This document shows positions 2,109 to 20,659 of a DNA stretch of 35,353 nucleotides, piece after piece (positions within the stretch are counted from its first letter, which is position 1; each line of letters starts with the position of its first letter). A program made the translations under genes and the position numbers. The notes under the pieces were generated by a model that saw only the letters and a list, made by a program, of their open reading frames with translations, was not told the origin of the DNA and ran no database searches. The stretch spans positions 1 through 35,353 of the forward strand of contig JACDHS010000045.1 in the NCBI GenBank assembly GCA_013820875.1. The letters are read 5' to 3'. The stretch is from Verrucomicrobiota bacterium. Lineage in GTDB: Bacteria > Verrucomicrobiota > Verrucomicrobiia > Limisphaerales > JACDHS01.

Positions 2109-2256
2109 GATGAGCGTAAGAGGTTGCGATGCTGTCTTGGGCGTTTGTATTGAATTAGTCGAGATTGCCTGTCCAGTTTATAAATCGCCTATCTCAGAGT
2201 GTAGTCATTCTTTAGCGTTTACAAGACGACTCGGGATCGATTGTGGGATGTTTGCT

Positions 2257-3732: not shown

Positions 3733-3780
3733 TGTTCTTGGGTGACTTGATTAAGATTATCGGACTTGCATTGCCAGTAT

Positions 3781-4716
3781 CTACCTACCTAGTACAGCAG
3801 AATTAGCTAAATCATCAGCCATTCTCATTATTTCGTTCAAATCGGTTATCTTCTTTCGCCATCCTTCCGGAATGTTCTCCAGACCGTGGTAAGCACCGGC
3901 GAGTTGCCCATACACAGCCGCAGTTGTATCTGCATCTTCTCCAAGATTTACAGCCGCCAAGCAACCTTCCTTGAAGGATTCGGTAGTCGCGAACGCCCAC
4001 AACGCAGCTTCTAAGCTTTGAACCACATAGCCACTTCCGCGAATCTGGTTTACCGTTTTGTGACGGTAGGATCCATTCGCGATCTCAGCAATTTCGCTGC
4101 AAAGCGGTTTCGAGCCCCAGAGTCCGGGTGCAGGAGAATAATCAGGGGAAAGGAGAGCTTCCTTGGAACTACCTCTCAATGCTCCTACGATCAAAGCACT
4201 GAGATAGCGGCAGGCATCAATAGCAGTTCGGGCCTGGTGAGTGGTGCGGGAACTTTCGCCCGACAGGTGGATTGCCTGCTCAGGATTTGAGAAATAAAAC
4301 AAAGGCACAGGCGCTAGCCGCATGATCGATCCGTTCCCAGCAGAATGTGGATCAGTGGAGCCGGCAAACGGTTCTTTGAATTGCAGATACCGGGTGAGAG
4401 CACCCCGCACAGTATTCCCGATGTCGAAGCAACGTCCAGTGCTGCTCATGTAACCTTCACGCCACCAGCGCAAATATTTCTCCTGCTGATCACGAGCATC
4501 GAAGCCTCGACAATCAATTAAACTCTGAGCCAGGCATAACGCCATGGAGGTATCATCCGTCCATTGACCTGGCTTAAGTCCGAAGGGACCACCCCCGACC
4601 ATGTCAGTCACTGGAGTGAATGTACCTGGTGCCTGAAACTCGACGGTCGTTCCTACTGCGTCGCCGATGGCTAAGCCAACTAAAGCACCTCTAAAGCGTG
4701 ACTCAAGAGATGTCAT
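3781..4716 (-). CDS. ADP-ribosylglycohydrolase family protein (DraG/ARH type)
   Basis: A 311-residue member of the ADP-ribosyl-glycohydrolase family, binuclear-magnesium enzymes that remove ADP-ribose from proteins, nucleic acids or small molecules. The opening FRGALVGLAIGDAVGTTVEF, the metal ligand motif WTDDT (52-56), GNGSIMR (127-133) and the C-terminal GEDADTTA (259-266) are all present, so the active site looks complete. Its start overlaps the stop of the preceding 158-codon gene by 4 bases, which indicates translational coupling. In phage defense such enzymes act either as antidotes to ADP-ribosyltransferase toxins or as effectors on NAD-derived signals. No ADP-ribosyltransferase is recognisable beside it, so the substrate is open. 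Length is normal for the family (about 300). Confidence 0.9.
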   Translation of the reverse strand: MTSLESRFRGALVGLAIGDAVGTTVEFQAPGTFTPVTDMVGGGPFGLKPGQWTDDTSMALCLAQSLIDCRGFDARDQQEKYLRWWREGYMSSTGRCFDIGNTVRGALTRYLQFKEPFAGSTDPHSAGNGSIMRLAPVPLFYFSNPEQAIHLSGESSRTTHQARTAIDACRYLSALIVGALRGSSKEALLSPDYSPAPGLWGSKPLCSEIAEIANGSYRHKTVNQIRGSGYVVQSLEAALWAFATTESFKEGCLAAVNLGEDADTTAAVYGQLAGAYHGLENIPEGWRKKITDLNEIMRMADDLANSAVLGR

Positions 4717-5189
4717 TGGGCCGATGTGTTGGGCGGCAGCAATTCGTCCAGGAAACTCGCCGAGGCTGGTTCGAGTTGCCGCACACTCCGAAGCGTTTGT
4801 TTATCGAGATGTGTATCGTCAACAAAGCGAAGCGTTTTGCTTTTCGATGAGGTGATAAATCGCAGTCGCTTCGCCACTTTCACTGGAACCTCTAAGGTAA
4901 AATCCTTAGGTGTGGCTGTGGATGCGAGGATATGCTCTTCTGCATTCCACAGGTCATCAATGCCCAGCAGTTTTTCAGCTTCTTTTTTGCTGCACACGCG
5001 ATCAACAACCATACGTCCGAGGAGAAAGAGCCGGCCTGCCTGAATCGTCAGCACGCAAATGGAGTCGCCGGGACTCGCGCCTCGTTTTCGAAACTGGTTT
5101 CCAGCCGTATGGCCAAGGGGCTCACCTTGCTGCTTGGAATGGGTTTTCCACGTCTCGTTGCTCCAATAGTGGGTAAAGAATTTCTTCAT
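4713..5189 (-). CDS. Conserved hypothetical protein, coupled to the ADP-ribosylglycohydrolase
   Basis: A 158-residue soluble protein that I cannot place in a named family with confidence. The first half (FFTHYWSNETW, then GNQFRKRGASPGDSICVLTIQAGRLFLLGRMVVD) reads like a compact beta-barrel resembling PUA/EVE/ASCH-type domains, which bind modified bases or RNA; this is a fold impression only. The second half is charged and ends in a flexible proline/serine tail. It overlaps the next gene by 4 bases, which argues that the two products are made together. There is no signal peptide or transmembrane segment. It belongs to the minus-strand set headed by the VWA gene. Confidence 0.7.
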   Translation of the reverse strand: MKKFFTHYWSNETWKTHSKQQGEPLGHTAGNQFRKRGASPGDSICVLTIQAGRLFLLGRMVVDRVCSKKEAEKLLGIDDLWNAEEHILASTATPKDFTLEVPVKVAKRLRFITSSKSKTLRFVDDTHLDKQTLRSVRQLEPASASFLDELLPPNTSAQ

Positions 5190-5242
5190 GCAGTTCTAAA
5201 AAACGTTTCGAGTATCTGTTCAAGCGTTCGTAATCTATGTCT

Positions 5243-5758
5243 TCATCTCTTAAATCGGGATTCGACTGCTTCAAAGTATTCATTCCATTTTCCTCGATCT
5301 AATTCGAAGAAGAATGCTCGACGAACTTCTCGGGGGAGGTCCTTTGCTTTTTGCTCAACAAAACAGACAACGAATGAGCGCAGGCTAATGCCATTTCCTT
5401 CCAGTGACGCGGCGTTAATTGTTTGTTCGAGAATCGATTGTTGAGCATTTCGCAAACGCGTTATCTGATTGCTGAGTACACCAGCATGTGCATCACCTGA
5501 CGCGCAACTGGGATCAGTAGCGAAACGCAAGAGCAGGGGCACTCCTCTTGGAACAATTTCACTCACCGGAAGGGACGGTGAAACCGGTTGTTGCTCTAAT
5601 TCCTTCTTCAAACCTGGCCTGATGCAAACCGCGGTATGTTCTTCTCGCCAACGTTCGGGATAGTATTTGCCACAAGCTGAACAGGCGACCAGGAATGGTC
5701 CTCGAACCTTTGCTGAGGCTCTTGCCCGTCCAATTTCATAGCTTAAGTCCCCATCCAT
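5243..5758 (-). CDS. Hypothetical protein with a C2HC zinc-finger-like motif
   Basis: A 171-residue protein of unknown function. Near the N-terminus Cys26-X2-Cys29, His41 and Cys45 (CSACGKYYPERW, then EEHTAVC) form a C2HC arrangement likely to bind zinc. A proline-rich linker follows (about 50-75), then a mostly helical, charged C-terminal region with QITRLRNAQQSILEQTI and REVRRAFFFELDRGKWNEYFEAVESRF. It starts 2 bases after the stop of the VWA gene and precedes the 158-codon gene by 53 bases, so it is almost certainly cotranscribed with both. It may be an adaptor for the VWA protein; that role is a guess from position. Confidence 0.65.
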   Translation of the reverse strand: MDGDLSYEIGRARASAKVRGPFLVACSACGKYYPERWREEHTAVCIRPGLKKELEQQPVSPSLPVSEIVPRGVPLLLRFATDPSCASGDAHAGVLSNQITRLRNAQQSILEQTINAASLEGNGISLRSFVVCFVEQKAKDLPREVRRAFFFELDRGKWNEYFEAVESRFKR

Positions 5759-5760
5759 GA

Positions 5761-7119
5761 TCAGATCGGTTCGTTCGTGTCTCCGGGTTGTTGAGGTGGC
5801 CGACGCCGTGGACGCTTGAAACTGGGTGCTTCTTCATTGGAGGTCCAGAGGTCTTCCGAACTCATCTTCCCAAGACTTTCGAGCCGATACTTGGTGCCTT
5901 TGCGCTCGCGTTCCGACCATTCTCCCTCCCGTAGCTTCTGCAATAGCTTTTCCAGTTGCACGAGGGCTTCACAAATCATCTCTACCGATCCGTATTCCTT
6001 AAGGCTCGCGATTGCTCCCTCGAGAAGTCGAATTGCTTCGGTCTGCTTCCCTTTATCCATCTGCTCCATCACTTCCTGCATCACCTTGCCAGCTGTTTGC
6101 ATCGCCACCCACGGCACGACTTCTGCGTGGACTCTCACGTCTTCAGGGTTCTGGGTCGCTTGAATCCGAATTACCTGGGTGATTGTTCTTGAAGCCACTT
6201 CAGCCTGGCCAATTTCATCAAAGGCCAATTCCATCTCAATGAGACGTTCACCTTCAATACTGAATGCTGGTTTGTTTTGGATGGAGGGCAGGGGGAGAAC
6301 ACTGAGGGTGAAGCATACAATACGCGTTTCACCGCTTACCAGGTCACCCATCGCAATTTCGGTTCGTCCATCCGGCAATTCAACCATCGGATAGTTACCC
6401 AGAAGGACTGCGGCATCGCAGAATTCTAAGCGTTTGAACCTTAATCGAAGGTTCTGCACTGATAGCTTCTGGAGACCTTCAAGTTCAGCTTCGAAAATTG
6501 CGGGGAGCTTTTCCGCTGAGTCGGCGTCATAAAACTGCCCACCAGTGACTTTGGCTAAATCAGCCATCAAGTCCTCATTATAACCATCCCCGAAACCCAG
6601 ACAGGAAGTGCGGATGCGATCCCTCTCAAGGCCAGCCGCTACGACTTGCTTTACAATGGGTGGATCAACAATGCCTACGTTGAGGTGCCCATCGCTTAAG
6701 AGAAGAAGGCGTCTAGTAGCTTCAGTTGGGGCTTTCTTTAATTCATCGCGACCCAACATCCAGCCTCCCGTTAAATTGGTGCTCCCTGCGTCTGTTATTT
6801 CGGCAATAATACGGAGCCACTCATCTTTCTTTGCCGCCGCAGGCTGTAGCGGAATAAGCGTTTGGGCTTCGTCGGCAAAAACAACCAAGCTGAAATGATC
6901 TTCCGGTCGGAGGTTCCGGACGGCTAGTTGTGCTGCCTCTTTAGCACGTTTCAGCGGTTCCCCAGCCATCGAGCCGCTGTGATCAATCACTGCATTGAAT
7001 GCGGCTGGCTTTGGACGGTTGTTGGTGACTGAAGCCGCTTCAAATTTCACTGCAAAGTGAACTGGTCGTGCGTGGTTGGCGAGGATCGTTTGGTAATCCA
7101 AATAAGTGTCTATTTTCAT
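5761..7119 (-). CDS. VWA-domain protein (Mg-dependent MIDAS), first gene of the minus-strand unit
   Basis: About 452 residues from the ATG at 7119. The frame extends to a TTG at 7203, but the extra 28 residues look non-coding and the VWA/VIT-like fold begins right after the ATG. An intact MIDAS is seen: D46-H-S48-G-S50, the threonine loop in GSTNLTGG, and the aspartate loop LLLLSDGHLNVG. After the VWA domain come a beta-rich region (about 220-320), a helical segment rich in Glu and Lys (about 335-410), and a basic proline-rich tail (PSFKRPRRRPPQQPG). There is no signal peptide or transmembrane segment, so the protein is cytoplasmic. VWA proteins commonly partner MoxR/McrB-type AAA+ ATPases, and one lies at the far end of this gene set. 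The gene is transcribed divergently from the Wadjet operon and likely leads the operon 369-7119. Confidence 0.85.
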   Translation of the reverse strand: MKIDTYLDYQTILANHARPVHFAVKFEAASVTNNRPKPAAFNAVIDHSGSMAGEPLKRAKEAAQLAVRNLRPEDHFSLVVFADEAQTLIPLQPAAAKKDEWLRIIAEITDAGSTNLTGGWMLGRDELKKAPTEATRRLLLLSDGHLNVGIVDPPIVKQVVAAGLERDRIRTSCLGFGDGYNEDLMADLAKVTGGQFYDADSAEKLPAIFEAELEGLQKLSVQNLRLRFKRLEFCDAAVLLGNYPMVELPDGRTEIAMGDLVSGETRIVCFTLSVLPLPSIQNKPAFSIEGERLIEMELAFDEIGQAEVASRTITQVIRIQATQNPEDVRVHAEVVPWVAMQTAGKVMQEVMEQMDKGKQTEAIRLLEGAIASLKEYGSVEMICEALVQLEKLLQKLREGEWSERERKGTKYRLESLGKMSSEDLWTSNEEAPSFKRPRRRPPQQPGDTNEPI

Positions 7120-7425
7120 GCCCGCAGGGTTGGTTGATGCACTTAGTTCTACACGTCCCCGAATCCGATGTCTACAAGTCAGGAAAAACCTGTGATTTAC
7201 CAACTAATGGGCTTGCACGGCTTGGTAGAAGTAAGCTTCTTTAATAACGACTCAGCTCACCTGCCCTCGCGGGGGGTATTTGAATCTTTGCAGGTAGAGG
7301 ACGGAGTATGTTCTTGCGCGAATGCCGTTTTTGGATAAGCATCTTGCATCTCACAGACAACATGAAAGCGGCGACTTTCACCTACGATATGGCGTCTCTG
7401 CCCGTTGCTTCTGGAAACCAAACAG
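7120..7425. promoter_or_regulatory. Divergent intergenic region between the VWA unit and Wadjet
   Basis: This stretch must hold promoters for both divergent transcripts. A short hairpin lies at 7227-7240 (AGAAG, loop TAAG, CTTCT), followed by a T-rich run. I see no convincing -35/-10 pair on either strand; TTGAAT at about 7280 is the nearest to a -35. A good ribosome site (GGAG five bases before ATG 7308) opens a 45-codon frame on the plus strand, described separately. No repeat array or operator with long dyad symmetry is apparent. Confidence 0.35.
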
Positions 7426-7445
7426 ATGCTTTTTCATTTCGATGA
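7308..7445 (+). CDS. Possible 45-residue leader peptide overlapping the start of jetA
   Basis: An ATG with a well placed GGAG opens a 45-residue frame that ends at the TGA in 7443-7445, about 20 bases inside jetA if that gene starts at 7426. Because jetA itself lacks a strong ribosome site, translation of this leader could feed ribosomes to jetA. The peptide has no recognisable domain. It may be only chance, since the same bases encode nothing else upstream of 7405. Confidence is low. Confidence 0.2.
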   Translation: MFLRECRFWISILHLTDNMKAATFTYDMASLPVASGNQTDAFSFR

Positions 7446-8862
7446 ATCGCCAGCGATAGCACTTCTTCACAAGAAGCACGCTGCAATCGTGCTTTCTTTC
7501 TATTCCAGGGCCTTCAAAGCAAACGGGGCCAGTGAAATTTCAGAAGAAAGGCTGGAGAGCAGGTGGGAAAAATTCATTGAAGAGGAGGTAACCGGAGCGG
7601 ATTGGGAAGGGGAGCCGCCAGCTAATTCCGCTAAACACTATTTTGAAGAATGGTGCAAAAACCGTTGGCTAGCCCGTAGTTATTCCGACAAGGAGGAATC
7701 CTATTTATACCGACTTACTTCGCACTCCGAACAAGCATTGCTCTTTATTGAGCAACATCTCTCCGGCAATCGCCGGTCGTTTGTAGGCACTGAGTCTAAT
7801 TTTTCTAAGATATGGCACGCACTGGTCGAGCTGAGCGAGAAGACGCAAACAGATCCAGCTGTCAGAGAAAAGCAACTGCTTGCGGAAAGAGATCGCATCG
7901 ATGCTGAGTTGATGGAGCTGCGGGAAACAGGAAAACCAAAGACTCTGGATGTTACAGCGGTCAAGTCTCGCCTTTTTGACTTGGTAAACATGGCGAATCG
8001 TTTTTTGGCGGATTTCCGGGCTGTAGAAGACTCTTTCCGCAAACAACGAGACCAAGTCCAGAACCTTTATCTTGAACAAGAGCAGTCGCCCGGTGACATC
8101 ATCGCGTGTGCTATCGACGCCGTCGAATTACTGAAAGACTCGGATGAAGGGCGGAGTTTTTTTGGCTTTCAACGAATGCTCCGGTCTTCGGAGGATCTGG
8201 AACTTCTTAGATTGCTCACCGAAGATTGTGTCAAACTCGCGACGCAGTATGACATCGAGCCGTCAGTGCTCAATGGTTTGGTTGGACGACTTCTTGAGGA
8301 GAGGAATAGGACACACTCTACCTTATCGACCATAACGAAGCAGCTACATGTGGTTGTGGAGGAGTCGTTCCGCAGAGATCGACGGCTGCTCCTGGACCTT
8401 GTTTCTGAAATTAAGAAGCGAGCACATTTCCTAAGGTCATCTCCTCCTGAACATATCGAAACGGTATGCCACCTGAGTCCATCCGTGAATCCTCTCCTCG
8501 GAATGAAGTTTTTTGAGAAAACTCAAGTTCCTGTGCTGAATACCACGCTCCGAAAAACTGATGAAAAAGCAGCCATGGACAGGTTTTTCAAGGGCATTGG
8601 TCCACAGCTTCGCCTGCAGGAGATACTCTCGATAATCAATTTGGCTCTCAATAAGCAGCCGCAAGTCATGTTATCCCGCCTGGTGGAAGATCATCCGCTA
8701 AAGGCCGGTGCAATCGACCTCCTTTGCTATGTCTTTGCCGCAGGCAGAAGTCGGGAACACCAGATCCTCGACATCAAAGTGGAAGTTTCAATCAGCGAAC
8801 AGCCGCGGCGTATTGTTCGGTTACCTGAAATAATTTATCGCCGCGCTAGCAAACATGAGTAA
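7426..8862 (+). CDS. jetA: Wadjet subunit JetA (DUF3375), MukF-like kleisin
   Basis: A protein of about 478 residues and the first gene of a type I Wadjet operon. JetA is the kleisin of a MukBEF-like SMC complex that recognises and removes small circular DNA. The N-terminus (SPAIALLHKKHAAIVLSFYSRAF) has the usual DUF3375 winged-helix opening, followed by LTSHSEQALLFIEQHL, a long charged coiled-coil middle (about 150-230), and a C-terminal winged-helix part. I chose the ATG at 7426 because the family's N-terminus aligns there; a TTG at 7405 would add seven residues. The stop overlaps the jetB start by 8 bases. Assignment rests on family features together with the full jetABCD order, which is diagnostic. 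Confidence 0.9.
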   Translation: MLFHFDESPAIALLHKKHAAIVLSFYSRAFKANGASEISEERLESRWEKFIEEEVTGADWEGEPPANSAKHYFEEWCKNRWLARSYSDKEESYLYRLTSHSEQALLFIEQHLSGNRRSFVGTESNFSKIWHALVELSEKTQTDPAVREKQLLAERDRIDAELMELRETGKPKTLDVTAVKSRLFDLVNMANRFLADFRAVEDSFRKQRDQVQNLYLEQEQSPGDIIACAIDAVELLKDSDEGRSFFGFQRMLRSSEDLELLRLLTEDCVKLATQYDIEPSVLNGLVGRLLEERNRTHSTLSTITKQLHVVVEESFRRDRRLLLDLVSEIKKRAHFLRSSPPEHIETVCHLSPSVNPLLGMKFFEKTQVPVLNTTLRKTDEKAAMDRFFKGIGPQLRLQEILSIINLALNKQPQVMLSRLVEDHPLKAGAIDLLCYVFAAGRSREHQILDIKVEVSISEQPRRIVRLPEIIYRRASKHE

Positions 8863-9475
8863 TAAACCCCTTCTTTCTCGTCGGCACGTCATCGCACGTT
8901 TGATCAATGGTGCTATTTACTTCGATGATGGGGATTACTGGAGCATCCTCACAGAAGATCCTACGCTATCGGAATACTTCGAAGAAATGGGTGTGAAACT
9001 GGTCGTAGACCATGAACTTGGTATGGGGTATCTGCGCCCTCTTAATGCTGCAGAGGAGGAAGAGATCATCGCGGCTGGTCAGGCTCCAATCCCTAAAGTT
9101 ATCCCGTCGAAAACTTTAGGATATTATCCATCGCTTCTTTGCGCATTCCTTCGGCAAGAGCTGCAGCTACACGAAGAGCACTCCGTCGATAGCCGTTTCC
9201 TTTACCTTGGTGAAAAAGACTTGAATGACCTACTTCGACCGTATTTGCCCGAATCTTTTGACGAAAAAGCGCAAAGGCGCGAAATCCGGAAAATCATCAA
9301 TCGTGTGGAGGAGATAGGAGTGTTGCACAAGATGCCAAACCGATCCGAAGCGCTTTATCGCGTTGAACCAATCATCCGAGCGCGAATCCCGATTGACCAG
9401 ATACAAAACCTCTTAGAGCAACTCAAATCATGCTCCGAAAGTAAGGACGGTTCTATTTCAGAGGAAGCAATATGA
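8855..9475 (+). CDS. jetB: Wadjet subunit JetB (DUF4194), MukE-like kite protein
   Basis: A 206-residue protein of the DUF4194 family, the size expected for JetB. In Wadjet it forms the kite dimer that binds the JetA kleisin, as MukE does with MukF. The sequence is acidic and helical with winged-helix-like segments: the N-terminal RHVIARLINGAIYFDD, the central GYYPSLLCAFLRQELQLHEE, and RREIRKIINRVEEIGVLHKM, which reads as a recognition-helix region. It overlaps jetA by 8 bases and jetC by 4, so expression is coupled along the operon. No enzymatic motif is expected or seen. Confidence 0.9.
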   Translation: MSNKPLLSRRHVIARLINGAIYFDDGDYWSILTEDPTLSEYFEEMGVKLVVDHELGMGYLRPLNAAEEEEIIAAGQAPIPKVIPSKTLGYYPSLLCAFLRQELQLHEEHSVDSRFLYLGEKDLNDLLRPYLPESFDEKAQRREIRKIINRVEEIGVLHKMPNRSEALYRVEPIIRARIPIDQIQNLLEQLKSCSESKDGSISEEAI

Positions 9476-12400
9476 ACCAAGTCCAAGATCTTCTCGATAT
9501 ATACCAGCAGGATGCAGCTTCCGGATACAGGTTGGATTACTGCGAAGCTTACAACTGGGGAACGTTTCATGAAACCGTGGTCCGAGCGCAATTCGATGGA
9601 CAGACTTCTCTTCTGACGGGAGAGAACGGTGCGGGAAAATCGACTATCGCCGATGCCCTCGTGACACTGCTGGTTCCGACAAACAAAAGAAACTACAACG
9701 CTGCTTCTGGCGAAGCAAAACGAGAAAGATCAGAACCGGATTACATTCGCGGAAATACTGGGTTGATTTACAACGATCAAAAAGAAAAGGACGAGCCGTT
9801 GTATCTACGGGGTGATGGCAAATACTCCACTATCCTTTTAGCGGTTTTCCAAAACCGACGGGCAAACAAGGCCGTCACCTTGGCACAAATCCTTTGGATT
9901 AAGAACAACGGTGATACAGGCAAAGTGTTCATTGTCGAGCCGCGTCCTCTTGCTATTGAGTCCGACATCTTAGGGTTTACGTCGATTGATAAGATCCATG
10001 ACTTCCTTGACGAACGTGGAATTCGTACATGCGAAAACTTCAAGGTGTATTCAGAAAGGTTTCATCGTTTGCTGAATCTCAATCCAGATCGCAATCCGAT
10101 GGACATCTTCAATCAAACAGTGGCCGTCAAAGACATCCGCAACCTTACCCATTTCATTCGGGATTTCATGTTGGAGGGTGGTTCCGCAGAGCAGGATTTC
10201 GCCCGGCTAAAAGAACGGGTCCGGGAGCTTCGTGAAACACATAGAATGATCCAGACTCAGAAGGAGCAACTGCGATCCCTCCAGGAAGTCACGGATCACG
10301 TCGCTAGGTGCAATGAAGCCAGAGACAGGAAGCGAAGCTTAGAGGACCAGCGCTCTGCTCTCGATCCGTTCTTTGCTTCTATTGAGTTCCGGCTTCGTCT
10401 TGCTTTGAGCGAAAGGAACTTCGGCGAAATTCAGGACTTGGTAGTCGAGCGTGATCGTTTAGCTCAGGCACAAGCTGAGTTGCAAGCGACGCTGGATTTA
10501 TACAAACAACAGCAAAAGAGTTCTGCTGCGGGTGATTCGTTGTCTCGACTTGAGGAAGAACTAGGATTGTTGGGAAGAAACTTAGAGCTGACAGATCGTG
10601 CAAGAACCCGGCTGCAGTCGGCAGTTGAAAAAATAGGGGCGAATCACCGGATTGATTCGGAGGAGACTTTCGCCAAACTTTCTGCGGCTTTGCCCGGAAT
10701 GGCGTTGGAAGCAAGAGCTCAAGAGCAGGCCATTCAAGATGCAGCAAAGTCTGCTGCCGGAAAGGTTTCTCGACTGAAGGAGGAGTGCGAGACGACGGAA
10801 AAGGAAATCGGCAGCCTTATTCGGCAACACACTTCGCTTCCAGCAGATGCTCTCGAACGTCGAGACTTCATTGCCGAGAGTCTCGGGATGCACAACAAGG
10901 ACCTTCCGTTTGTTGGAGAGCTTATCCAAGTTTCGAAAAATCATGTTCGCTGGACAGGCGCGATCGAACGATTATTACACAGCTTCGCGTTAACGATTCT
11001 GGTCCACGAACGAGATCGTGTTGCTGTAGACGCCTTTGTCAGTGCAACCGGGATGAAAGGACGAATTGAATACTTTCCTGTCCCGGAAAACGGCGGCTCC
11101 CTATCGGGAAAACCGAGTCAAGATACCGTTGCAGGCAAAATCGATATAAAGCCAAACTGCGGCTCTTTTGGGAAGTACATCGCCAAAGAGTTGTCTCAGC
11201 GATATGACCATGTCTGCTGCGAGACCACAAACGAACAATGGCACGGCGCATGCCAAGCGCTTACCATGAGCGGCTTGTTTAAAGGGCGCTCTGGTCGACG
11301 CATTAAAGACGATCGTAACGATGTTAATGATCGCAAAAAGTGGGTGCTCGGATGGGACAATCAAAGCAAACTGCAACTATTGAAGGAACAGAATAAAGCT
11401 TCTCAAGGGCAAGGCCAAGCTGCTGTCGAAGAATGGCAACTAGCCGAACGTCGGAAGAAAGCACATGAACTGAAACTGCAAGCGATAGAAGCATTAATTG
11501 AAGAAAAGCTGTCTTTCGATTGCATTGATTCTAAGAGCATTCTTATCGAAATATCCGCCAAGGAAAAACAACGAGAGCTGCTGCAAAAGGATCCTGAATT
11601 AGAGCAATTGAGCAGGAACATCGCCGTAACAAAGAGAGAGCTTTCGACAGCAAGCAAGGATCACGATAAGACAGCATTTGCGGTTCGGATGAAAGAAGCC
11701 GAGGAGACTAAAAACTTAGAAAGGATCGAAACCCTTCGGCAATTAACATCTCAGCAAGGGGAAGAGCTGGAAGATACTTTCCTTCTGATCCGGCAGCGTT
11801 GTTCAGAGAAATTTGATGAAATCGAAACGTTGGAGCAGCGGCGTCGCGGGCTAGAGAGTGAATATTCGCTGGATATTGAAGGAGAACGCAAAGTCGAGAA
11901 TGCAAAACAATTGGCTGCGCTGGCAAAGATGGCCGCTATAATCATGCACGACGGTTGGCAGCACCTGCACGACGAACTTGGATCGACCTCCCCGAGCGAG
12001 CTTTCCCTTGAGGTTGTGAATCGGTTCAACCAAGTTGAACAGCGCATTCGGATGGATGATATTCCCAAGAACGAAGAGAAATTTAGAAGGCTGCTTCAGG
12101 AAACGGTTATCGATGATTTTAATTCTTTTTACCAGACCTTACAGAATCTCGAGCAGACGATTCGAACCCGAATTAGTCAAATAAACCTCCATCTTGGAAA
12201 GGTTGATTTTGACCGTCGAGAAGAGCAAAAAACTTATATTCGCCTCTTGCCCGAAAAAACGAAGGACCAACTTGTTCGCGATTTTAGAACGAAATTGCAG
12301 GACTCTCTTAAAGGCATTTTAAACATCGATCTTGACCTCAATGCCCGCGAGCGATGCTTTCACCAGATCAACGCATTGATCGAAGAATTAGACGCGAACC

Positions 12401-12852
12401 CCAAACAAAGGCAGCATGTGGCAGACGTGCGCAACTGGTTTGACTTCAAAGCCGAAGAGCGCTTCCGGGTGGGCGACCGGCCTAAAGAGACATACCAGGG
12501 TGCAATCGGTAAGTCCGGAGGTGAAAAATCCCGACTGGCTTCTACAATCCTGGCCACAGCGATCGCTTATCAGTACGACATCGAAATCGACAAACCGCAT
12601 GGCGACACCTTCCGATTTGTTTTGATTGATGAAGCCTTGAGCCGGATTGGTGATGAGTTCTCGGAGTTTCTGTTCGAAGTTTTTGCACGCTTTCATCTCC
12701 AGTTGCTGATCATCCATCCTCGAGACGCAAAGCTCCATGTTACCGAGAAGTTCGTTACCAGGTACAGCGTAGCCCTCAAGCCGGATAGGTTTTCGACCCT
12801 GGTAAATATGACGGTGCATGAGTTTCAAGAGTATAAGAGCCAGTTTGCATAG
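9472..12852 (+). CDS. jetC: Wadjet subunit JetC, SMC/MukB-like ATPase
   Basis: A 1126-residue SMC-type ATPase, the motor of Wadjet that loads on and extrudes DNA. Walker A GENGAGKST lies at 50-58. The ABC signature GKSGGEKS is near 1013-1020 and Walker B FVLIDEALS near 1049-1057, so both halves of the ATPase head are intact. Between them are two long coiled coils, rich in Glu, Arg and Gln, flanking a globular middle region at about 480-640 (HVRWTGAIERLLHSF, then VSATGMKGRIEYFPV), which should be the hinge. The ATG overlaps the jetB stop by 4 bases, and the stop is 2 bases before jetD. Length agrees with type I JetC. The ATPase is expected to work as a dimer with JetA and JetB. Confidence 0.95.
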   Translation: MNQVQDLLDIYQQDAASGYRLDYCEAYNWGTFHETVVRAQFDGQTSLLTGENGAGKSTIADALVTLLVPTNKRNYNAASGEAKRERSEPDYIRGNTGLIYNDQKEKDEPLYLRGDGKYSTILLAVFQNRRANKAVTLAQILWIKNNGDTGKVFIVEPRPLAIESDILGFTSIDKIHDFLDERGIRTCENFKVYSERFHRLLNLNPDRNPMDIFNQTVAVKDIRNLTHFIRDFMLEGGSAEQDFARLKERVRELRETHRMIQTQKEQLRSLQEVTDHVARCNEARDRKRSLEDQRSALDPFFASIEFRLRLALSERNFGEIQDLVVERDRLAQAQAELQATLDLYKQQQKSSAAGDSLSRLEEELGLLGRNLELTDRARTRLQSAVEKIGANHRIDSEETFAKLSAALPGMALEARAQEQAIQDAAKSAAGKVSRLKEECETTEKEIGSLIRQHTSLPADALERRDFIAESLGMHNKDLPFVGELIQVSKNHVRWTGAIERLLHSFALTILVHERDRVAVDAFVSATGMKGRIEYFPVPENGGSLSGKPSQDTVAGKIDIKPNCGSFGKYIAKELSQRYDHVCCETTNEQWHGACQALTMSGLFKGRSGRRIKDDRNDVNDRKKWVLGWDNQSKLQLLKEQNKASQGQGQAAVEEWQLAERRKKAHELKLQAIEALIEEKLSFDCIDSKSILIEISAKEKQRELLQKDPELEQLSRNIAVTKRELSTASKDHDKTAFAVRMKEAEETKNLERIETLRQLTSQQGEELEDTFLLIRQRCSEKFDEIETLEQRRRGLESEYSLDIEGERKVENAKQLAALAKMAAIIMHDGWQHLHDELGSTSPSELSLEVVNRFNQVEQRIRMDDIPKNEEKFRRLLQETVIDDFNSFYQTLQNLEQTIRTRISQINLHLGKVDFDRREEQKTYIRLLPEKTKDQLVRDFRTKLQDSLKGILNIDLDLNARERCFHQINALIEELDANPKQRQHVADVRNWFDFKAEERFRVGDRPKETYQGAIGKSGGEKSRLASTILATAIAYQYDIEIDKPHGDTFRFVLIDEALSRIGDEFSEFLFEVFARFHLQLLIIHPRDAKLHVTEKFVTRYSVALKPDRFSTLVNMTVHEFQEYKSQFA

Positions 12853-12854
12853 GT

Positions 12855-14012
12855 ATGACAGTTGAGGAACTTAAGAGAAAAGCATCCAGTCATTACGCTG
12901 GCATGATTCGGGAAATTCTCTCTGGCACAAATCCATTCCCAATTCGGTTAGGCTACAAACGCCCGTCACGCTCACAAAACCCTGCGGAGTTTTTGCGGGT
13001 GAAGGAAATGTTGCGTTCTCAATCAAAGCAAATGGTTGGCTTCGGTCCCTCTATTGGGTTTGAGGAAGTTAACACCCGGCGATTCGCAAAAGCGCTGATT
13101 CCTGGAACAATTTTATTCGACACGTTCGAAGATCTCACCCGCTATATCGACAAGGAACAGGAAGCCCTGCGCATCTTGGCGCATGCAGCAATAGTTACAA
13201 ACGAATATCCAGCTGCTCGAGCATGGGTAGCAAAACGTTGGAGGGTGCTGATCGACGGCGACCAGGAACATTGGTCCGGAATCGTTGAGGCGGTGCGTTT
13301 CTTTCAGCAAAATCCCAAGCCTTGGATTTATCCAAGGGAGGTTTCGCTTTCCCGTGGAACAAAATTCTTAGAAAACAATTACGCTCTGATCATCGATCTT
13401 TTGGAGCATACGTCACCCTTGACACTTAACACCCATTACGAATCTTGGCAGGATCGGCTAGGTCTCAGATCGGCATCGTGTTTCATCGAGGGTCGGTTCC
13501 TGGATCAGAAAACCGTTCCCGCGCTTCCAAGGCATCTGATGATCTCCACAGAGGAGTGGAACCGTGCTCTTGAGGGAAGTGTATCCACCTTCCTGATTGT
13601 CGAGAACCGAACGACTTTTCTGACATTGCCCCCGACTTCTAATTGCATCGCTCTGCTTGGAAAAGGTTATGCAGTTGCTCGTTTAGAGGAGATTAAAGCG
13701 TTAGCGACTTCGAAGGTATTTTACTGGGGAGATACTGATCAGCACGGCTTTGAAATCCTTGCATTGCTTCGCGCTCGTGTTCCTCAGGTGCAAAGCGTGT
13801 TGATGGGGCTTCTGATTTTGAAGCGGTTTCCCAAACTTGTGCAGATCGAGACAGTTGACCCGACATTGCCGACCGAGTTCGTCCAGACGCACCTCGATGC
13901 ATCCGAGCAGGAAGTCTGGAGATTATGCGCGGACTCGCACACTCGTGTTGAGCAGGAACATCTGCCTCTTGCATTTGTGAACGAAGTTCTATCAGGACGG
14001 CTCAATCATTGA
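12855..14012 (+). CDS. jetD: Wadjet subunit JetD (DUF3322 + DUF2220), Toprim-type nuclease
   Basis: A 385-residue nuclease subunit. The N-terminal DUF3322 region (about 1-190) ends with FLENNYALIIDLL. The C-terminal DUF2220 region has the Toprim residues: Glu250 in LIVENRTTF, Asp293 and Asp295 in WGDTDQHGFEIL, and a late acidic site in RVEQE (367). JetD is the subunit that cuts circular plasmid DNA once the SMC complex has completed extrusion. It starts 2 bases after jetC, so the four genes form one transcript. Its last 11 bases overlap the tail of the convergent FRG gene, and no terminator is visible between them. Confidence 0.93.
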   Translation: MTVEELKRKASSHYAGMIREILSGTNPFPIRLGYKRPSRSQNPAEFLRVKEMLRSQSKQMVGFGPSIGFEEVNTRRFAKALIPGTILFDTFEDLTRYIDKEQEALRILAHAAIVTNEYPAARAWVAKRWRVLIDGDQEHWSGIVEAVRFFQQNPKPWIYPREVSLSRGTKFLENNYALIIDLLEHTSPLTLNTHYESWQDRLGLRSASCFIEGRFLDQKTVPALPRHLMISTEEWNRALEGSVSTFLIVENRTTFLTLPPTSNCIALLGKGYAVARLEEIKALATSKVFYWGDTDQHGFEILALLRARVPQVQSVLMGLLILKRFPKLVQIETVDPTLPTEFVQTHLDASEQEVWRLCADSHTRVEQEHLPLAFVNEVLSGRLNH

Positions 14013-15150
14013 AGCATTTGGCCCTCAAAGAACGACAAACACCTTCAACACCAGGAAAAAGCGTGGCTGCAGTAATGCCCATAAAACGAAGGTCCTCAAC
14101 AACCGCATCCCGTTCTTCGGCCAATATATCGAAGCGCGTTAAAAATTGTCGGTTCTGCTGCTTTTCCAAGGTGCTCACATAGCCTTCAATGTCTTCGATA
14201 TTGGTGTATGCCGCCACCGATTGCTGCGGATAGTATCGTGGATTGTTATGTGCGGCTGGGTGGACGAATTGCAGATTAGGCCAGGGATCTTTCAATGATA
14301 CTCCTATCTGCGTTGGCCAGTATTTTGAATCAAAAACGTAAATCCTCGCGGGAGCCTTATTCGGCGTTTCACTCCAATGCCCACGGCTCGCTAAGCAATT
14401 GAATGCGAAGAATGCTGCAACGTAAGGAGAAGATGTCCAATCTAGCAATGGAGTGGGGTATTGATGATGTTGAGCAAGGCTTAGCAATGCCAGATAATCT
14501 TCGCCATGTGGATGGTAGTAGTGCTCGGACACTGCATTAATCTGGTGTCTGAGGCGCGGCACGTCCTCTTCAACATAGCGGACGAGGTTGTTCCGCCCTG
14601 ACCGATGAAAAGATGTCTTTAACGAGTAGGCGTTTGAATGCTGACCTCGGAACAGCACTTGTTCGAGCCCTCGGAATCGGTTCATTTCCTTTTTAAATTC
14701 TTCCCAGCGGAGGGGGCCGACCGCTGGAAGTTTCTGTTCGCAACCCATTGCCTCGGCAAACGATTTTGTCAGTTCAAAGCGCCCCGTCTGACCCAAGTTA
14801 TTTTGAAAAGAACCAGTAATTTTCTTGCTTGAGAATTCTGCGTGATAATCAGCCTCATCCGGAGCCGGTACGTTAACATTGTGCGCTGCCGTATAATCTC
14901 GAAGCGCTATGAACTGATCGGTGCTTGGATCAAAAACGCGATAGTTCTGAGTTTTACCGAGAAACTTATTACCCTCAAAAGACCCCACCGCATCGCTGAT
15001 TGTGCGGATACCATGTTGTGGGCTCAACCCCAGAACCTGCGCATGCCCATTCGATCGGCGCTCGATATTCACCACGACCACGGTTGTGGTTCCGTCTGGC
15101 AACCAGGAATGGCCTATCCATTGGCCTGAAGAATCGTTCGTTTCATCCAT
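14002..15150 (-). CDS. FRG-domain protein
   Basis: A 382-residue protein whose C-terminal part is an FRG domain, named for the Phe-Arg-Gly motif. FRGQ is at 167-170, and the second conserved block AQHHQYPTPLLDWTSSPYVAAFFAF is at 226-250. The N-terminal 140 residues (WIGHSWLPDGTTTVVVVNIERR, then SFQNNLGQTGRFELTKS) form a beta-rich region unknown to me. FRG proteins are frequent in defense islands and toxin loci, and their biochemical activity is mostly unsettled. The gene converges with jetD with an 11-base overlap, which could cause transcriptional interference. It may be a separate defense gene or the distal member of the pVip/ankyrin strand. No signal peptide. Confidence 0.85.
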   Translation of the reverse strand: MDETNDSSGQWIGHSWLPDGTTTVVVVNIERRSNGHAQVLGLSPQHGIRTISDAVGSFEGNKFLGKTQNYRVFDPSTDQFIALRDYTAAHNVNVPAPDEADYHAEFSSKKITGSFQNNLGQTGRFELTKSFAEAMGCEQKLPAVGPLRWEEFKKEMNRFRGLEQVLFRGQHSNAYSLKTSFHRSGRNNLVRYVEEDVPRLRHQINAVSEHYYHPHGEDYLALLSLAQHHQYPTPLLDWTSSPYVAAFFAFNCLASRGHWSETPNKAPARIYVFDSKYWPTQIGVSLKDPWPNLQFVHPAAHNNPRYYPQQSVAAYTNIEDIEGYVSTLEKQQNRQFLTRFDILAEERDAVVEDLRFMGITAATLFPGVEGVCRSLRAKCFND

Positions 15151-15574: not shown

Positions 15575-18034
15575 TTATAGATGATCAGGAATTATCCGTC
15601 GCATCTGTTCTGACATGCGCATCGTGTAGATTGGTCTCCCAAGTGCCTCTACAAAAAGGCGATAGTCGGCCCCATATTCCATTAGTAGCTTCGCCATTTG
15701 GTAATCATCATTCATGACGGCTCGCAACAATGCGGTCCCGCCTCCTTGGAAGCGGTGATTCACGTTCGCTTTAGCAGCAAGGAGCAGTCCTACCACATCC
15801 TGCAGGCGTCCTTCGGCGGCTAAAGTAAGAGCAGTGTTGTCTCCTACGTGCGGTATATCGACGTCGACTGTTAGCTCAGTAACTAGGTAATTGATGCAGG
15901 AAAGTACCCCCTCTTTATTCTCCTTCTTTACCAATTCGGCCATGATTTGCTTCGTGGTTTCCGAACCGGATGGAACTGAACGAAGGTGTCCCTCGGGGTG
16001 TCGGGAAAATATTAGGCAGTTGATTGCGTAGTAGAGCGCGGTGTTTCCATGGATACGTGCCACGTTCATATCGATGTCCGGACGCCAGGGCCTCCATCGA
16101 GCTAGTTCGCGGAGAATCTCAAGTTGTCCAGTTGAGATCGTTTGTTCCAGTCCGCTAATACGCCTTTTTTTTGTCTCTCGCAGAATTGTCTCGCGTCGAA
16201 TCGGATTATGCTCGCGCCGAAGGATCTCCAGCACGATTTCGTAATCTTTGACCGCAATCGCTTTAGTCAAACAGGTGTCCCCGGTTGAATTTACAAAATT
16301 AAGATCTGCACCATTCCTCAATAGCTCACGAGCGCGATCCAGTTGTCGTCTGTCTAAAGCTTCCATCAATGGAGTTTGATCCCGCCCAACGATTGTTTCG
16401 GACATTATTTTCTTTTGGCGACGGTCGATGGGTACCGCCTGTAAATTCTCCGTATGTTCGCTGAAACTAAAAACGCCTCCAAGATTCCAATGAGTCAGCC
16501 CAAGTTGGGGCATTGTCGCTTTGAGCCGCTTTCGCAGGTCGGGGTTTAGGGCGTCATTGAACCGCGATTCGGCCAATTCAATGCGTTGCTCTAACTGCTC
16601 GTGATTGTATTCCATGCCAAGGCCGAGCAGATCCCACCAACCCAGCAATTTCTTGATCCAAGGCTTGATTGGACCTTCCCCGGCTTCATGCCGATGCAGT
16701 AACGAAGCTAACCCTAATGCTTCGCGGACGGTTTGGGCGGTAAAGATTCCTGCTCGGTATCGAGATTCTGAAAATGCCTCTTCGTAAAGGTGTAAGGCTT
16801 TTTGAAGAGAATCCCTTGTCGGTAGCGGATGATAAAGTGCCTGCCGTGCTTCGATTGTCAGTAGCGGCCCAGCAAATATGTTGCACCAGTCAGGGTATTC
16901 TCGCCGTAGCTGCTCTAACTCTATCTCTATCTGTGATGTCGCCAGGGTAGGCGTCCGCAGCGAGGTTTCTTTCCAAATTCTTCCCAGACGGCTTTCGAAT
17001 GCGTGGAACTGCGGAGGCGGAGCCTGCGATTCCAAAAATCGGCGATCATATTCATTGTACACCGCAAACCTGGCGACTCTCACGTCTAAGGCGGCCGCAC
17101 CGCGTGGTAGAGATCCCAACAGTTTTTCAAACGTGAATAAGGCATCGCCGAGCAAACTCATGAAATCGGGGAGGCTTGTGTTTGGGTGCCGAGCCAATTC
17201 GTTGTTTACAATCTCTTCGACTGAATGCAGACAACTCGCTTGCCGAATAAGTAATCTCCCGCACTCGTTCGATTCATCGGCCGAACCAATGTCTCGCAGG
17301 TGCCGAACCAATTCTTCGACCAGGCCACCAAATGCGTGATTTAGCAGCAGCCCCAATTTATCCGGTGTCTTAGCGAAGTGTCGGCCAAGAGCATCACAGG
17401 TTGGACGTTCAGCGCCGGACTCCCAGGCTGCGAGTGTTTTAGGGTCTACAGGGGAAGCATTGTCCTCGTTTACTTTGCAATAGTGTTGGAAGCAGATGCG
17501 TTGCAGGGGATGCCTATAGTTGCTCTTTGGGAACCACGCTTCGTCGATGAGCTTGTCCAACCCCCAGTTAAGCGTGGGACCGTTTGAACCATCAAAGCGC
17601 CGGAGCGTCTTTTGCAATAGCCAGATCAGGTTTAATGCCCGAGGTGCTACTGCTCGTGCATACCAGGCACGCGTCTCCATACGGCCAAAGTAAGTCGTGT
17701 TTACTCTGACGCCGTTAACGTGATCCTCTAGAACGATGTCCCATAAGCAGCGAAGCGCCCTGGCAATGTCCTCTGAATACGGTAGAGACTGTGTTTGGTG
17801 ACTGATGAAGGTGGACAAGTCGTCGCGACTTGGGACCCGACCTTCAACCTCTGTGGCCCAATCTCTTAGTTGATCACAGACGTCCCTAACTTCTTTCGCG
17901 GTGCGCCTTTTCGTCGATTCTTTGTGAAACGCGTCGCCCCACGAAGGCAAGTCCATTGCCGATACTAGGAAATGGAAGACTTCTCCGCATGTTGGGAAGT
18001 GGCTCGGAATCGGTTCTGGCGGTCTTGTTTTCAT
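15575..18034 (-). CDS. Large ankyrin-repeat protein next to pVip
   Basis: An 819-residue cytoplasmic protein. About 540 N-terminal residues have no fold I can name; they are helical and include LAAWESGAERPT at 201-212, which resembles the end of a Cro/XRE-type helix-turn-helix. From about 545 to the end are ankyrin repeats: TPLMEALDRRQLDRARELLRNGADLN, then GNTALYYAI, and a better kept pair NTALTLAAEGRLQDVVGLLLAA and GTALLRAVMNDDYQMAKLLMEYGAD. Ankyrin arrays bind partner proteins. The gene starts 31 bases after the pVip stop on the same strand, so the two are probably one operon. This makes it a candidate partner or sensor for the viperin. No enzyme motif, signal peptide or membrane segment is seen. 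Confidence 0.75.
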   Translation of the reverse strand: MKTRPPEPIPSHFPTCGEVFHFLVSAMDLPSWGDAFHKESTKRRTAKEVRDVCDQLRDWATEVEGRVPSRDDLSTFISHQTQSLPYSEDIARALRCLWDIVLEDHVNGVRVNTTYFGRMETRAWYARAVAPRALNLIWLLQKTLRRFDGSNGPTLNWGLDKLIDEAWFPKSNYRHPLQRICFQHYCKVNEDNASPVDPKTLAAWESGAERPTCDALGRHFAKTPDKLGLLLNHAFGGLVEELVRHLRDIGSADESNECGRLLIRQASCLHSVEEIVNNELARHPNTSLPDFMSLLGDALFTFEKLLGSLPRGAAALDVRVARFAVYNEYDRRFLESQAPPPQFHAFESRLGRIWKETSLRTPTLATSQIEIELEQLRREYPDWCNIFAGPLLTIEARQALYHPLPTRDSLQKALHLYEEAFSESRYRAGIFTAQTVREALGLASLLHRHEAGEGPIKPWIKKLLGWWDLLGLGMEYNHEQLEQRIELAESRFNDALNPDLRKRLKATMPQLGLTHWNLGGVFSFSEHTENLQAVPIDRRQKKIMSETIVGRDQTPLMEALDRRQLDRARELLRNGADLNFVNSTGDTCLTKAIAVKDYEIVLEILRREHNPIRRETILRETKKRRISGLEQTISTGQLEILRELARWRPWRPDIDMNVARIHGNTALYYAINCLIFSRHPEGHLRSVPSGSETTKQIMAELVKKENKEGVLSCINYLVTELTVDVDIPHVGDNTALTLAAEGRLQDVVGLLLAAKANVNHRFQGGGTALLRAVMNDDYQMAKLLMEYGADYRLFVEALGRPIYTMRMSEQMRRIIPDHL

Positions 18035-18065
18035 TGCACGTCAAGATTTGCTAGTTCCAGGGAGT

Positions 18066-18980
18066 TCAACAGACCTCTTTCTTGATGTTAAGACCGCTTA
18101 CGAAATCATACTCTCCGTGCCGTTGTCGAAATCGTTCCACCGAGAAGTTGATCTCGGCCCATGCCGCTTCGATCCCCACGCTCACAATCGGTTGGCTGTA
18201 TTGGTGCGTTCGTTTCGAGTTGTCAAAAAAACATCCATTTGGTGCAACCATTGCATAGCTGCCATATATCTCGTCTTGCGTTTCAGGCACGAGAACAATG
18301 CCCGATTCTTCGAGTGAAGAATGCCGCGCCGAGAACATTTTGAATTCTTCCTCGCTGACACCCCATCGATCAAAGTCCTCGCCGTTTTCCTCCTCGATCC
18401 TTGTGGCTTGGAGTATTTTCCACCTCAGTGGCTGGGCCTTACGCATGAAACAAGTGAAATCCTCGTGCGCGTTCAATCGGTTTACAACCGTGTTGACCTT
18501 TACCCGGATACCCAAGGTTTTTGCCAACTGGATCTTTGACAGGTATTCAGCTTCAGAAAGGGGACCGTTGTAACCACTTCGCCCGATGCGACGATTTGTT
18601 TCGAGATCGAGAGAATCAATGCTGATGGTAAGCCAATCAAGCACGGGTGCTAGACCATAGATTCTTTCTTCAGTTAGAAGTGACCCATTCGTTACAAGCG
18701 AAGTCACAAGACCATGCGAATGGGCGAACTGAACATCCTCGACCAACGAACTGGATAAAAGCGGCTCACCTCCGGCAAAAGTCACTTTTCGGGGCTGCGA
18801 TCCGGTCAACTGCGGCGTTTGCGCTATCTGCCGAATGATCTGATGCAATTCCAACTTGGGGATAGTCTTGCGTTTGGCGGAGATGAAACCGGAATGGCAG
18901 AAGCCGCACCTGTAGTTGCACGGGACGAGCGTATGGAGGTTTACGGTGACTGGGAGCGGTTTAGATACAGGATGTGTCAT
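18066..18980 (-). CDS. Prokaryotic viperin (pVip), radical SAM ddh-nucleotide synthase
   Basis: A 304-residue radical SAM enzyme with clear viperin identity. The opening VNLHTLVPCNYRCGFC places the cluster cysteines at 21, 25 and 28 in the viperin form CNYxCxFC. Next come FAGGEP (68-73), VTNGSL (96-101), ISIDS (119-123), RIGR (131-134) and VKVNTVVNRLN (160-170), then LRWKILQ (185-191). The C-terminal lobe (EEFKMFSARH, then VPETQDEIYGSYAMVAPNGCFF and IVSVGIEAA) matches the nucleotide-binding end of viperins. Viperins dehydrate the ribose of a nucleoside triphosphate to a 3'-deoxy-3',4'-didehydro form that terminates viral RNA synthesis; which base this one uses cannot be read from sequence. 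No nucleotide kinase lies beside it, unlike some pVip loci. It precedes the ankyrin gene by 31 bases. The alternative, a general radical SAM protein, is unlikely. Confidence 0.92.
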   Translation of the reverse strand: MTHPVSKPLPVTVNLHTLVPCNYRCGFCHSGFISAKRKTIPKLELHQIIRQIAQTPQLTGSQPRKVTFAGGEPLLSSSLVEDVQFAHSHGLVTSLVTNGSLLTEERIYGLAPVLDWLTISIDSLDLETNRRIGRSGYNGPLSEAEYLSKIQLAKTLGIRVKVNTVVNRLNAHEDFTCFMRKAQPLRWKILQATRIEEENGEDFDRWGVSEEEFKMFSARHSSLEESGIVLVPETQDEIYGSYAMVAPNGCFFDNSKRTHQYSQPIVSVGIEAAWAEINFSVERFRQRHGEYDFVSGLNIKKEVC

Positions 18981-19214
18981 GGATGATCCTGTAACCCAAC
19001 AGCGGCAGCGGAGGCAAAAAGGGGAGATTCGGAAAAATTCCGTTCTTCTCTTGGGTCTAGAACTAGAGAACTCTAGGAATTGAGGATCTATGACGCTACG
19101 TGAAGGATATTTACCAGGAGGGGTCGTTTACATACAGCCCACATACACTTTTGGAGGAATTATGCGAAGACTAAACCTGCTTAACCGTTTATACGCAGGG
19201 GGTTAGGAAAAAAT
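18981..19214. promoter_or_regulatory. Upstream region of pVip with two short perfect dyads
   Basis: Two perfect inverted repeats lie 50-100 bases upstream of the pVip start: CGGAA/TTCCG with a 3-base spacer at 19030-19042, and CTAGAG/CTCTAG with a 2-base spacer at 19063-19076. Either could be an operator for pVip. Further right, ACATAC occurs twice at an 11-base period (19130 and 19141), and a GGAGG precedes a 14-codon plus-strand frame (19162-19206) that I regard as doubtful. No -35/-10 pair stands out. The region separates the defense genes from tRNA-Glu. Confidence 0.35.
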
Positions 19215-19290
19215 GGCGACCCTACCGGGAATCGAACCCGGGCTACCTCCGTGAAAGGGAGGTGTCCTAACCGCTAGACCATAGGGTCGC
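19215..19290 (-). tRNA. tRNA-Glu (anticodon TTC)
   Basis: Read on the minus strand, it folds as a full cloverleaf: acceptor stem GCGACCC with GGGTCGC, anticodon stem CCTCC/GGAGG around the loop CTTTCAC (anticodon TTC), and T-arm GGGTTCGATTCCC. The CCA end is not encoded. Its 3' end faces the defense island, the usual side for integration of mobile elements, but no integrase and no second copy of the 3' end are visible in this window. Confidence 0.95.
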
Positions 19291-20582: not shown

Positions 20583-20659
20583 GCCAGCGTAGCTCAGTTG
20601 GTTAGAGCGTGGGACTCATAAGCCCGAGGTCACTGGTTCGATTCCAGTCGCTGGCACCA
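20583..20659 (+). tRNA. tRNA with CAT anticodon (elongator Met, or Ile2)
   Basis: The cloverleaf is acceptor GCCAGCG with CGCTGGC, D-arm GCTCAGTTGGTTAGAGC, anticodon loop CTCATAA (anticodon CAT) and T-arm ACTGG/CCAGT, with the CCA end encoded. A G1-C72 pair excludes the initiator type. The anticodon stem has a terminal T-G pair and an A-G mismatch next to the loop. Elongator Met and lysidine-modified Ile2 cannot be told apart with certainty from the gene alone. Confidence 0.93.

What the first reader, a model, noticed from the sequence alone, without database searches (positions are those of the whole stretch)
18066..18980. A prokaryotic viperin sits in this island
The protein reproduces the viperin pattern almost in full: CNYRCGFC, FAGGEP, NGSL, SIDS, KVNTVVNRLN, RWKILQ and a viperin-like C-terminal lobe. 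Viperins make ddh-nucleotides that stop viral RNA polymerases. pVips are few and scattered, and one in this lineage next to Wadjet is worth recording.
Basis: partly seen in the sequence, partly recalled or inferred. Interest (0 to 1): 0.8.

Follow-up and report, generated by a model that had tools for sequence, protein, structure and literature searches.

The report
Bacterial viperin paired with ankyrin protein
This is a genuine bacterial viperin, an antiviral enzyme expected to make RNA-chain-terminating nucleotides, and in five related species it is always followed by the same large ankyrin-repeat protein (three of them with a small toxin-like gene between the two), which points to a viperin defence operon with a partner not described in the papers I could search.

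Summary
The ORF at 18066-18980 is real. It lies on the minus strand and encodes 304 aa. It is a prokaryotic viperin: it passes the NCBIfam viperin equivalog cut-off (272 vs 180 bits), branches with viperins rather than MoaA-type enzymes, and keeps the CX3CX2C cluster and the residues invariant across pVips and mouse viperin. The enzyme itself is a new member of a known family.

The new part is its neighbour. The next gene (15575-18034, 31 nt downstream, same strand) encodes an 819-aa protein: a helical N-domain, a disordered linker and ankyrin repeats. Homologues were found in only five species of the phylum, always just downstream of a closely related viperin (54-64% identical; one clade, 100/99 support). 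None was found elsewhere. In three of the five, an ~80-aa ParE-like toxin gene lies between them with start/stop overlaps, so the unit is an operon. The window and one relative lack the toxin gene, yet both keep viperin plus ankyrin.

Best reading: a viperin defence operon whose ankyrin protein is a dedicated partner, most likely a sensor or regulator. Pairing is well supported; the partner's role is inferred. Wadjet lies 4 kb away and is not conserved beside these viperins.

The parts
18066..18980 (-). pVip gene, 304 aa radical SAM viperin
   Evidence: NCBIfam NF038283 272.5 bits vs cut-off 180; PADLOC pVip; PDB viperins; tree
18897..18920 (-). CX3CX2C [4Fe-4S] cluster motif CNYRCGFC (residues 21-28)
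   Evidence: translation; C21, C25, C28 invariant in the 12-sequence alignment
15575..18034 (-). 819-aa ankyrin protein, dedicated partner of this pVip clade
   Evidence: Pfam Ank_2/Ank; homologues only beside close pVips in 5 species
16502..17998 (-). all-helical N-terminal domain of the ankyrin protein (residues 13-511), weakly TPR-like at 341-511, otherwise no matched fold
   Evidence: AlphaFold pLDDT 80.8, pTM 0.79; no Foldseek hit below E 0.001; VIA-align Z up to 8.6 over 341-512
16382..16501 (-). predicted disordered linker (residues 512-551)
   Evidence: pLDDT about 30
15578..16381 (-). ankyrin-repeat domain (residues 552-819); its first half is the best conserved part of the protein
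   Evidence: Pfam; VIA-align Z 19.9 to Bcl-3 ankyrin domain, 219 residues, 2.9 A; 58% mean identity in residues 552-660 against 28-45% in the N-domain
18035..18065 (-). 31-nt gap between pVip and ankyrin genes; the place where three relatives carry a ParE-like toxin gene, absent here
   Evidence: gap sequences and translations; ParE_like PF24732 in L001, L003, L004

Best explanation
The locus is a two-gene antiphage unit: a prokaryotic viperin and a dedicated helical/ankyrin partner protein. SHOWN: the viperin has the cluster cysteines and the conserved substrate-site residues; the partner gene travels with this viperin clade in all five species found and occurs nowhere else in the sampled phylum; in three relatives the unit is a translationally coupled operon viperin - ParE-like toxin - ankyrin (coupling read from overlapping start and stop codons). 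INFERRED: the viperin reductively cleaves SAM and abstracts the 4'-H of an NTP (which one is unknown) to give a ddhNTP that terminates phage RNA chains. The ankyrin protein, which shows no enzymatic domain, has a protein-binding repeat array on a flexible tether, and diverges faster than the viperin except in its first ankyrin repeats, most likely senses infection or holds and releases the viperin. The ParE-like protein, where present, would be an added toxic arm. It is dispensable while the ankyrin protein is not, so the ankyrin protein is tied to the viperin rather than being a mere antitoxin.
For: Viperin identity. Pairing: L001, L002, L003 and L004 (one each from genomes G296, G649, G261, G039) and the window all have the ankyrin gene just downstream of the pVip, or one small gene further (the G039 copy is cut by a contig end and continues in L101). 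In 388 phylum genomes 4 have the ankyrin protein and all 4 are among the 15 with pVip; by chance alone p about 1.5e-6, adjacency not counted. Order and class samples add one further pair and no orphan. Operon: 4-nt or 1-nt start/stop overlaps at both junctions in L001, L003, L004. ParE_like PF24732 46-55 bits, cut-off 24.4. One clade 100/99.
Against: No experiment. Only five species, all in one pVip clade, so the pairing could be one association inherited together, although adjacency survives down to 31% identity of the ankyrin protein and across several families. The window's gap is 31 nt rather than an overlap, so co-transcription here is inferred. Sensor or regulator is deduced from lack of an enzymatic domain and from the repeat architecture, not from a match to a known sensor. 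Other phyla were tested for the ankyrin protein only through plasmids and IMG/VR and indirectly through the pVip-pattern scan of genome contigs.
Confidence: 0.6

Rival explanations
1. The pVip works alone as in experimentally tested pVips; the ankyrin protein is an independent defence protein that only shares the operon and island.
For: pVips without this partner are common, and tested pVips act as single genes (established knowledge of the family; PMC10865869 states their anti-phage activity).
Against: An independent gene should also occur without pVip; it never does in the sampled genomes. Coupled overlaps in three relatives.
Confidence: 0.2
2. The ankyrin protein is the antitoxin or neutraliser of the ParE-like toxin, and the unit is a toxin-antitoxin pair added to a viperin.
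For: In L001, L003, L004 the ParE-like gene lies directly before the ankyrin gene with overlapping codons; no classical small antitoxin was seen beside it.
Against: Window and L002 lack the toxin but keep the ankyrin gene intact. L079 has pVip plus a ParE-like gene with no ankyrin protein.
Confidence: 0.12
3. The radical SAM protein is not a viperin in function but a MoaA-like or peptide-maturing enzyme.
For: Distant similarity to MoaA and SPASM maturases, as for any radical SAM protein.
Against: MoaA score 60.7 against cut-off 284, viperin 272.5 against 180; tree; conserved viperin residues beyond the cluster; no C-terminal SPASM-type cysteine array in the translation.
Confidence: 0.03

Closest known systems
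Prokaryotic viperins (pVip; NCBIfam NF038283, PADLOC PDLC02903 'viperins not associated with kinases')
   Same: Full-length family match, cluster motif, GGEP, KxNTVVN, RWK; groups with viperins
   Different: No kinase gene beside it; instead an 819-aa ankyrin protein
Eukaryotic viperin (RSAD2, PDB 5vsl/6q2p)
   Same: 33% identity, shared catalytic-site residues
   Different: Separate clade (100/94); no FHTAKTS segment after the cluster; no N-terminal extension that could hold the membrane-anchoring region of the animal protein
pVip with adjacent HicA or RelE toxin genes (PMC10865869)
   Same: Three relatives of this unit, and L079, carry a ParE-like (RelE superfamily) toxin gene beside the pVip
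   Different: The passages of that paper on viperins report no ankyrin partner; the window itself lacks the toxin gene
pVip-kinase systems and fusions
   Same: Viperin paired with an accessory gene; examples seen here in Nostoc and Pseudoalteromonas plasmids and as a cytidylate kinase fusion in L080
   Different: Accessory protein here is a helical/ankyrin protein with no kinase match
Ankyrin domains of Bcl-3, IkappaB-zeta and RNase L
   Same: Ankyrin fold (VIA-align Z 16-20)
   Different: Generic fold match only; no relation of function is implied

Membership tests
Prokaryotic viperin | CX3CX2C radical SAM cluster motif | tested here: met
   C21, C25, C28
Prokaryotic viperin | Score above the curated viperin equivalog cut-off | tested here: met
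   272.5 vs 180 bits
Prokaryotic viperin | Phylogenetic place among viperins, outside MoaA and other radical SAM families | tested here: met
   split 94/93; one divergent radical SAM row (L018, branch 8.3) was placed on the viperin side and is not to be trusted
Prokaryotic viperin | Residues conserved from mouse viperin through pVips in the NTP and SAM site (K161, N163, W187, K188, N98, R134) | tested here: met
   invariant in the 12-sequence alignment with mouse viperin; their role in NTP binding is from established structural knowledge
Prokaryotic viperin | Forms a ddhNTP from an NTP | not testable with these tools
   needs an anaerobic in vitro assay
Prokaryotic viperin | Protects against phage | not testable with these tools
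   needs expression and phage challenge in a laboratory strain
Kinase-associated pVip | Nucleotide kinase gene adjacent or fused | tested here: not met
   the adjacent genes are the ankyrin protein and a tRNA-Glu gene; the protein ends at 304 aa with only the viperin domain
pVip with RelE/ParE-type toxin (PMC10865869) | RelE-superfamily toxin gene beside the pVip | tested here: not met
   31-nt gap without an ORF in the window, no homologue elsewhere in the genome above chance; met in L001, L003, L004 and L079
MoaA | Score above the MoaA cut-off | tested here: not met
   60.7 vs 284 bits

The most novel reading that the evidence does not exclude
A class of regulated viperin operons exists in which a large helical-repeat protein gates ddhNTP synthesis, with an optional ParE-like toxin as a second arm. 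The ankyrin protein here would be one such gatekeeper. An unrelated 640-730-aa protein family beside other pVips (L079, L084, IMG/VR L116), a 703-aa protein overlapping the pVip in L098, and Sel1 repeats fused to the pVip in L087 would be others.
Probability: 0.4. Interest if true: 0.68.

Novelty: new variant of a known kind. Interest (0 to 1): 0.5.

Why it matters
How pVips are switched on, and how cells avoid harm from their own chain terminators, is to my knowledge open; published work in the held library treats pVips as single genes, or beside HicA/RelE toxins, and PADLOC adds kinases. A partner that never leaves its viperin gives a concrete, testable candidate for that control. It also shows that viperin operons can contain parts that current defence-system models (PADLOC pVip) do not list.

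Tried and rejected
Wadjet as a partner of the pVip: rejected, no Jet homologue in the fetched flanks of the closest pVip loci. FRG protein (14002-15150) as third gene of the unit: rejected, more than 400 nt away and no homologue in the L001-L004 flanks. Phage or plasmid origin of the ankyrin protein: no homologue in plasmids or IMG/VR; only weak radical SAM hits to the pVip in phage records. Similarity of the ankyrin protein to the other large pVip neighbours (L079, L084, L098, L076): none by BLAST or hhalign. Fold of the N-domain: no significant match in PDB or BFVD; a weak TPR-like segment only; the rest of the domain was barely tested. Integration-type duplication of the tRNA-Glu 3' end in the window: none found. 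Predicting which NTP is used: no specificity data were available, not attempted. Bernheim et al. 2021 could not be read, so its list of pVip neighbours was not checked directly. Papers naming viperin with ankyrin in a defence setting: two hits; the one read treats the two terms in unrelated passages, the other is a survey of animal-virus protein domains by its abstract.

Full report
The observation. The stretch 18066-18980 holds one open frame of 304 aa on the minus strand. NCBIfam's viperin equivalog scores 272.5 bits against a cut-off of 180; MoaA scores 60.7 against 284. PADLOC's pVip profile 'not associated with kinases' is its best match (267.9 bits). Viperin structures are the best PDB matches (E 5e-33).

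Tree. I placed the protein among 24 other prokaryotic viperins, four viperin sequences from PDB and eight other radical SAM proteins, three of them from the window's own genome. It lies with the viperins. Five sequences form one clade with 100/99 support: the window, L001, L002, L003 and L004, all labelled or grouped as Verrucomicrobia in the records. The other radical SAM proteins fall outside (94/93), except one very long branch (L018) whose place is not to be trusted. In a 12-sequence alignment with mouse viperin, the three cluster cysteines, GGEP, N98, R134, K161, N163, W187, K188 and others are invariant, so nothing suggests an inactive copy.

The neighbour. The next gene on the same strand starts 31 nt after the viperin stop. 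It encodes 819 aa with ankyrin repeats at the C-terminus. The same protein follows the viperin in L001 (54% identical), L002 (43%), L003 (41%) and L004 (31% over its N-terminal part; the rest is on another contig, L101, 36%). In 388 genomes sampled evenly from the phylum, four have this protein, and all four are among the 15 that have a viperin. Drawing four at random would do this with probability about 1.5e-6, before adjacency is counted. Samples of 293 genomes of the order and 305 of the class gave one more pair and no orphan. It was not found on plasmids or in IMG/VR. The five viperins are the only ones in the set with this partner; the next nearest (44% identical, L098, L100) lack it in the sequence held (L100 is cut by its contig end).

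A third gene in relatives. In L001, L003 and L004 the space between viperin and ankyrin genes is about 250 nt and holds one ORF of about 80 aa that matches Pfam ParE_like (PF24732) at 46 to 55 bits against a cut-off of 24.4. Its start overlaps the viperin stop (ATGA or GTGA), and its stop overlaps the ankyrin start (ATGA or TAATG). This is the signature of a translationally coupled operon. The window has only 31 nt there and L002 157 nt with no such ORF; the window's genome has no other credible copy (best E 0.145, with stops). Because L004 is the outermost member of the clade and has the gene, loss in the window and L002 is the simplest reading. RelE and HicA genes beside pVips are already reported (PMC10865869); an ankyrin partner is not mentioned in the papers found.

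What the partner looks like. AlphaFold gives an all-helical N-domain (residues 13-511), a linker with pLDDT near 30 (512-551), and an ankyrin domain. The ankyrin part matches many ankyrin structures (Z up to 19.9), including RNase L's sensor domain, but that is the generic fold. The N-domain alone, predicted well (pTM 0.79), has no significant match; residues 341-511 look like TPR hairpins at Z about 8, which is weak for helical repeats. No enzymatic domain was recognised. Conservation is highest in the first ankyrin repeats (58% mean identity among five species, equal to the viperin's 57% among four) and low in the N-domain (28-45%).

Mechanism. From established knowledge of viperins: the cluster cleaves SAM, the radical removes the 4'-hydrogen of a bound NTP, and loss of the 3'-OH gives a ddhNTP that ends RNA chains. 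That this protein does so is inferred, with high confidence, from residue conservation; which NTP is unknown. The partner is inferred to sense or regulate: it never leaves the viperin, it shows no catalytic domain, and it is built of protein-binding modules on a flexible tether. The toxin is optional in the unit while the ankyrin protein is not, which argues against the ankyrin protein being only an antitoxin.

Other viperin partners seen. L079 and L084 each have a 640-727-aa protein just upstream of the viperin; the two are homologous (29% over 268 aa, E 2e-25), and a relative stands before the viperin of an IMG/VR contig, L116 (E 2e-16). L079 also has a ParE-like gene right after its viperin (43.4 bits). 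L098 has an unrelated 703-aa protein overlapping the viperin gene. L087 has Sel1 repeats on the same open frame as the viperin, and L080 a cytidylate kinase domain. L076 carries a viperin between CRISPR-like repeat arrays, Cas1 and a Card1-like CARF protein. Large accessory proteins thus recur beside viperins in this phylum; whether they do the same job is unknown.

Wadjet. JetA-D at 7405-14012 is a complete type I Wadjet by PADLOC matches, but none of its genes lies in the fetched flanks of the closest viperins. The two are neighbours in an island, without evidence of a link.

Verdict. The viperin is a new member of a known family. The viperin-(ParE-like)-ankyrin operon is a new variant of a known kind, with strong evidence of association and an inferred role.

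Noticed in passing
L076:8001-8912 (pVip) with 4884-5873 Cas1 and 8953-10230 CARF: A pVip sits inside a CRISPR locus next to Cas1 and a Card1-like CARF-domain protein, between repeat arrays; a viperin possibly wired to CRISPR signalling.
   Followed up: partly
L079:614-2536, L084:8974-11157, L116:2784-4856: A second unnamed family of large pVip neighbours (640-727 aa), found upstream of three pVips including one on an IMG/VR contig; no Pfam match for the L079 and L084 proteins.
   Followed up: partly
L079:3512-3787: ParE-like toxin ORF directly after the pVip (PF24732, 43.4 bits), in a locus without the ankyrin protein.
   Followed up: partly
L098:8867-10963: A 703-aa protein of unknown family overlaps the end of the pVip gene in the sister clade.
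   Followed up: partly
L087:7989-10202: Open frame joining Sel1 repeats to a radical SAM viperin domain (737 aa).
   Followed up: no
L003:1-300 (same gene in L085): The pVip of this genome lacks its start and the first two cluster cysteines, about 145 nt from a contig end; assembly fault or broken gene, not resolved.
   Followed up: partly
window 369-7203: Minus-strand cluster beside Wadjet: an AAA ATPase resembling McrB, a DUF2779 protein with Cas4-like similarity, an ADP-ribosylglycohydrolase with a small partner, a VWA protein; possible further defence genes.
   Followed up: no
window 14002-15150: FRG-domain protein matching PADLOC candidate system PDC-S15, between Wadjet and the pVip unit.
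   Followed up: partly
window 19214-19288 and 20583-20659: tRNA-Glu just upstream of the pVip and tRNA-Met further on; the tRNA-Glu end is not duplicated in the window, so no integration site could be shown.
   Followed up: partly
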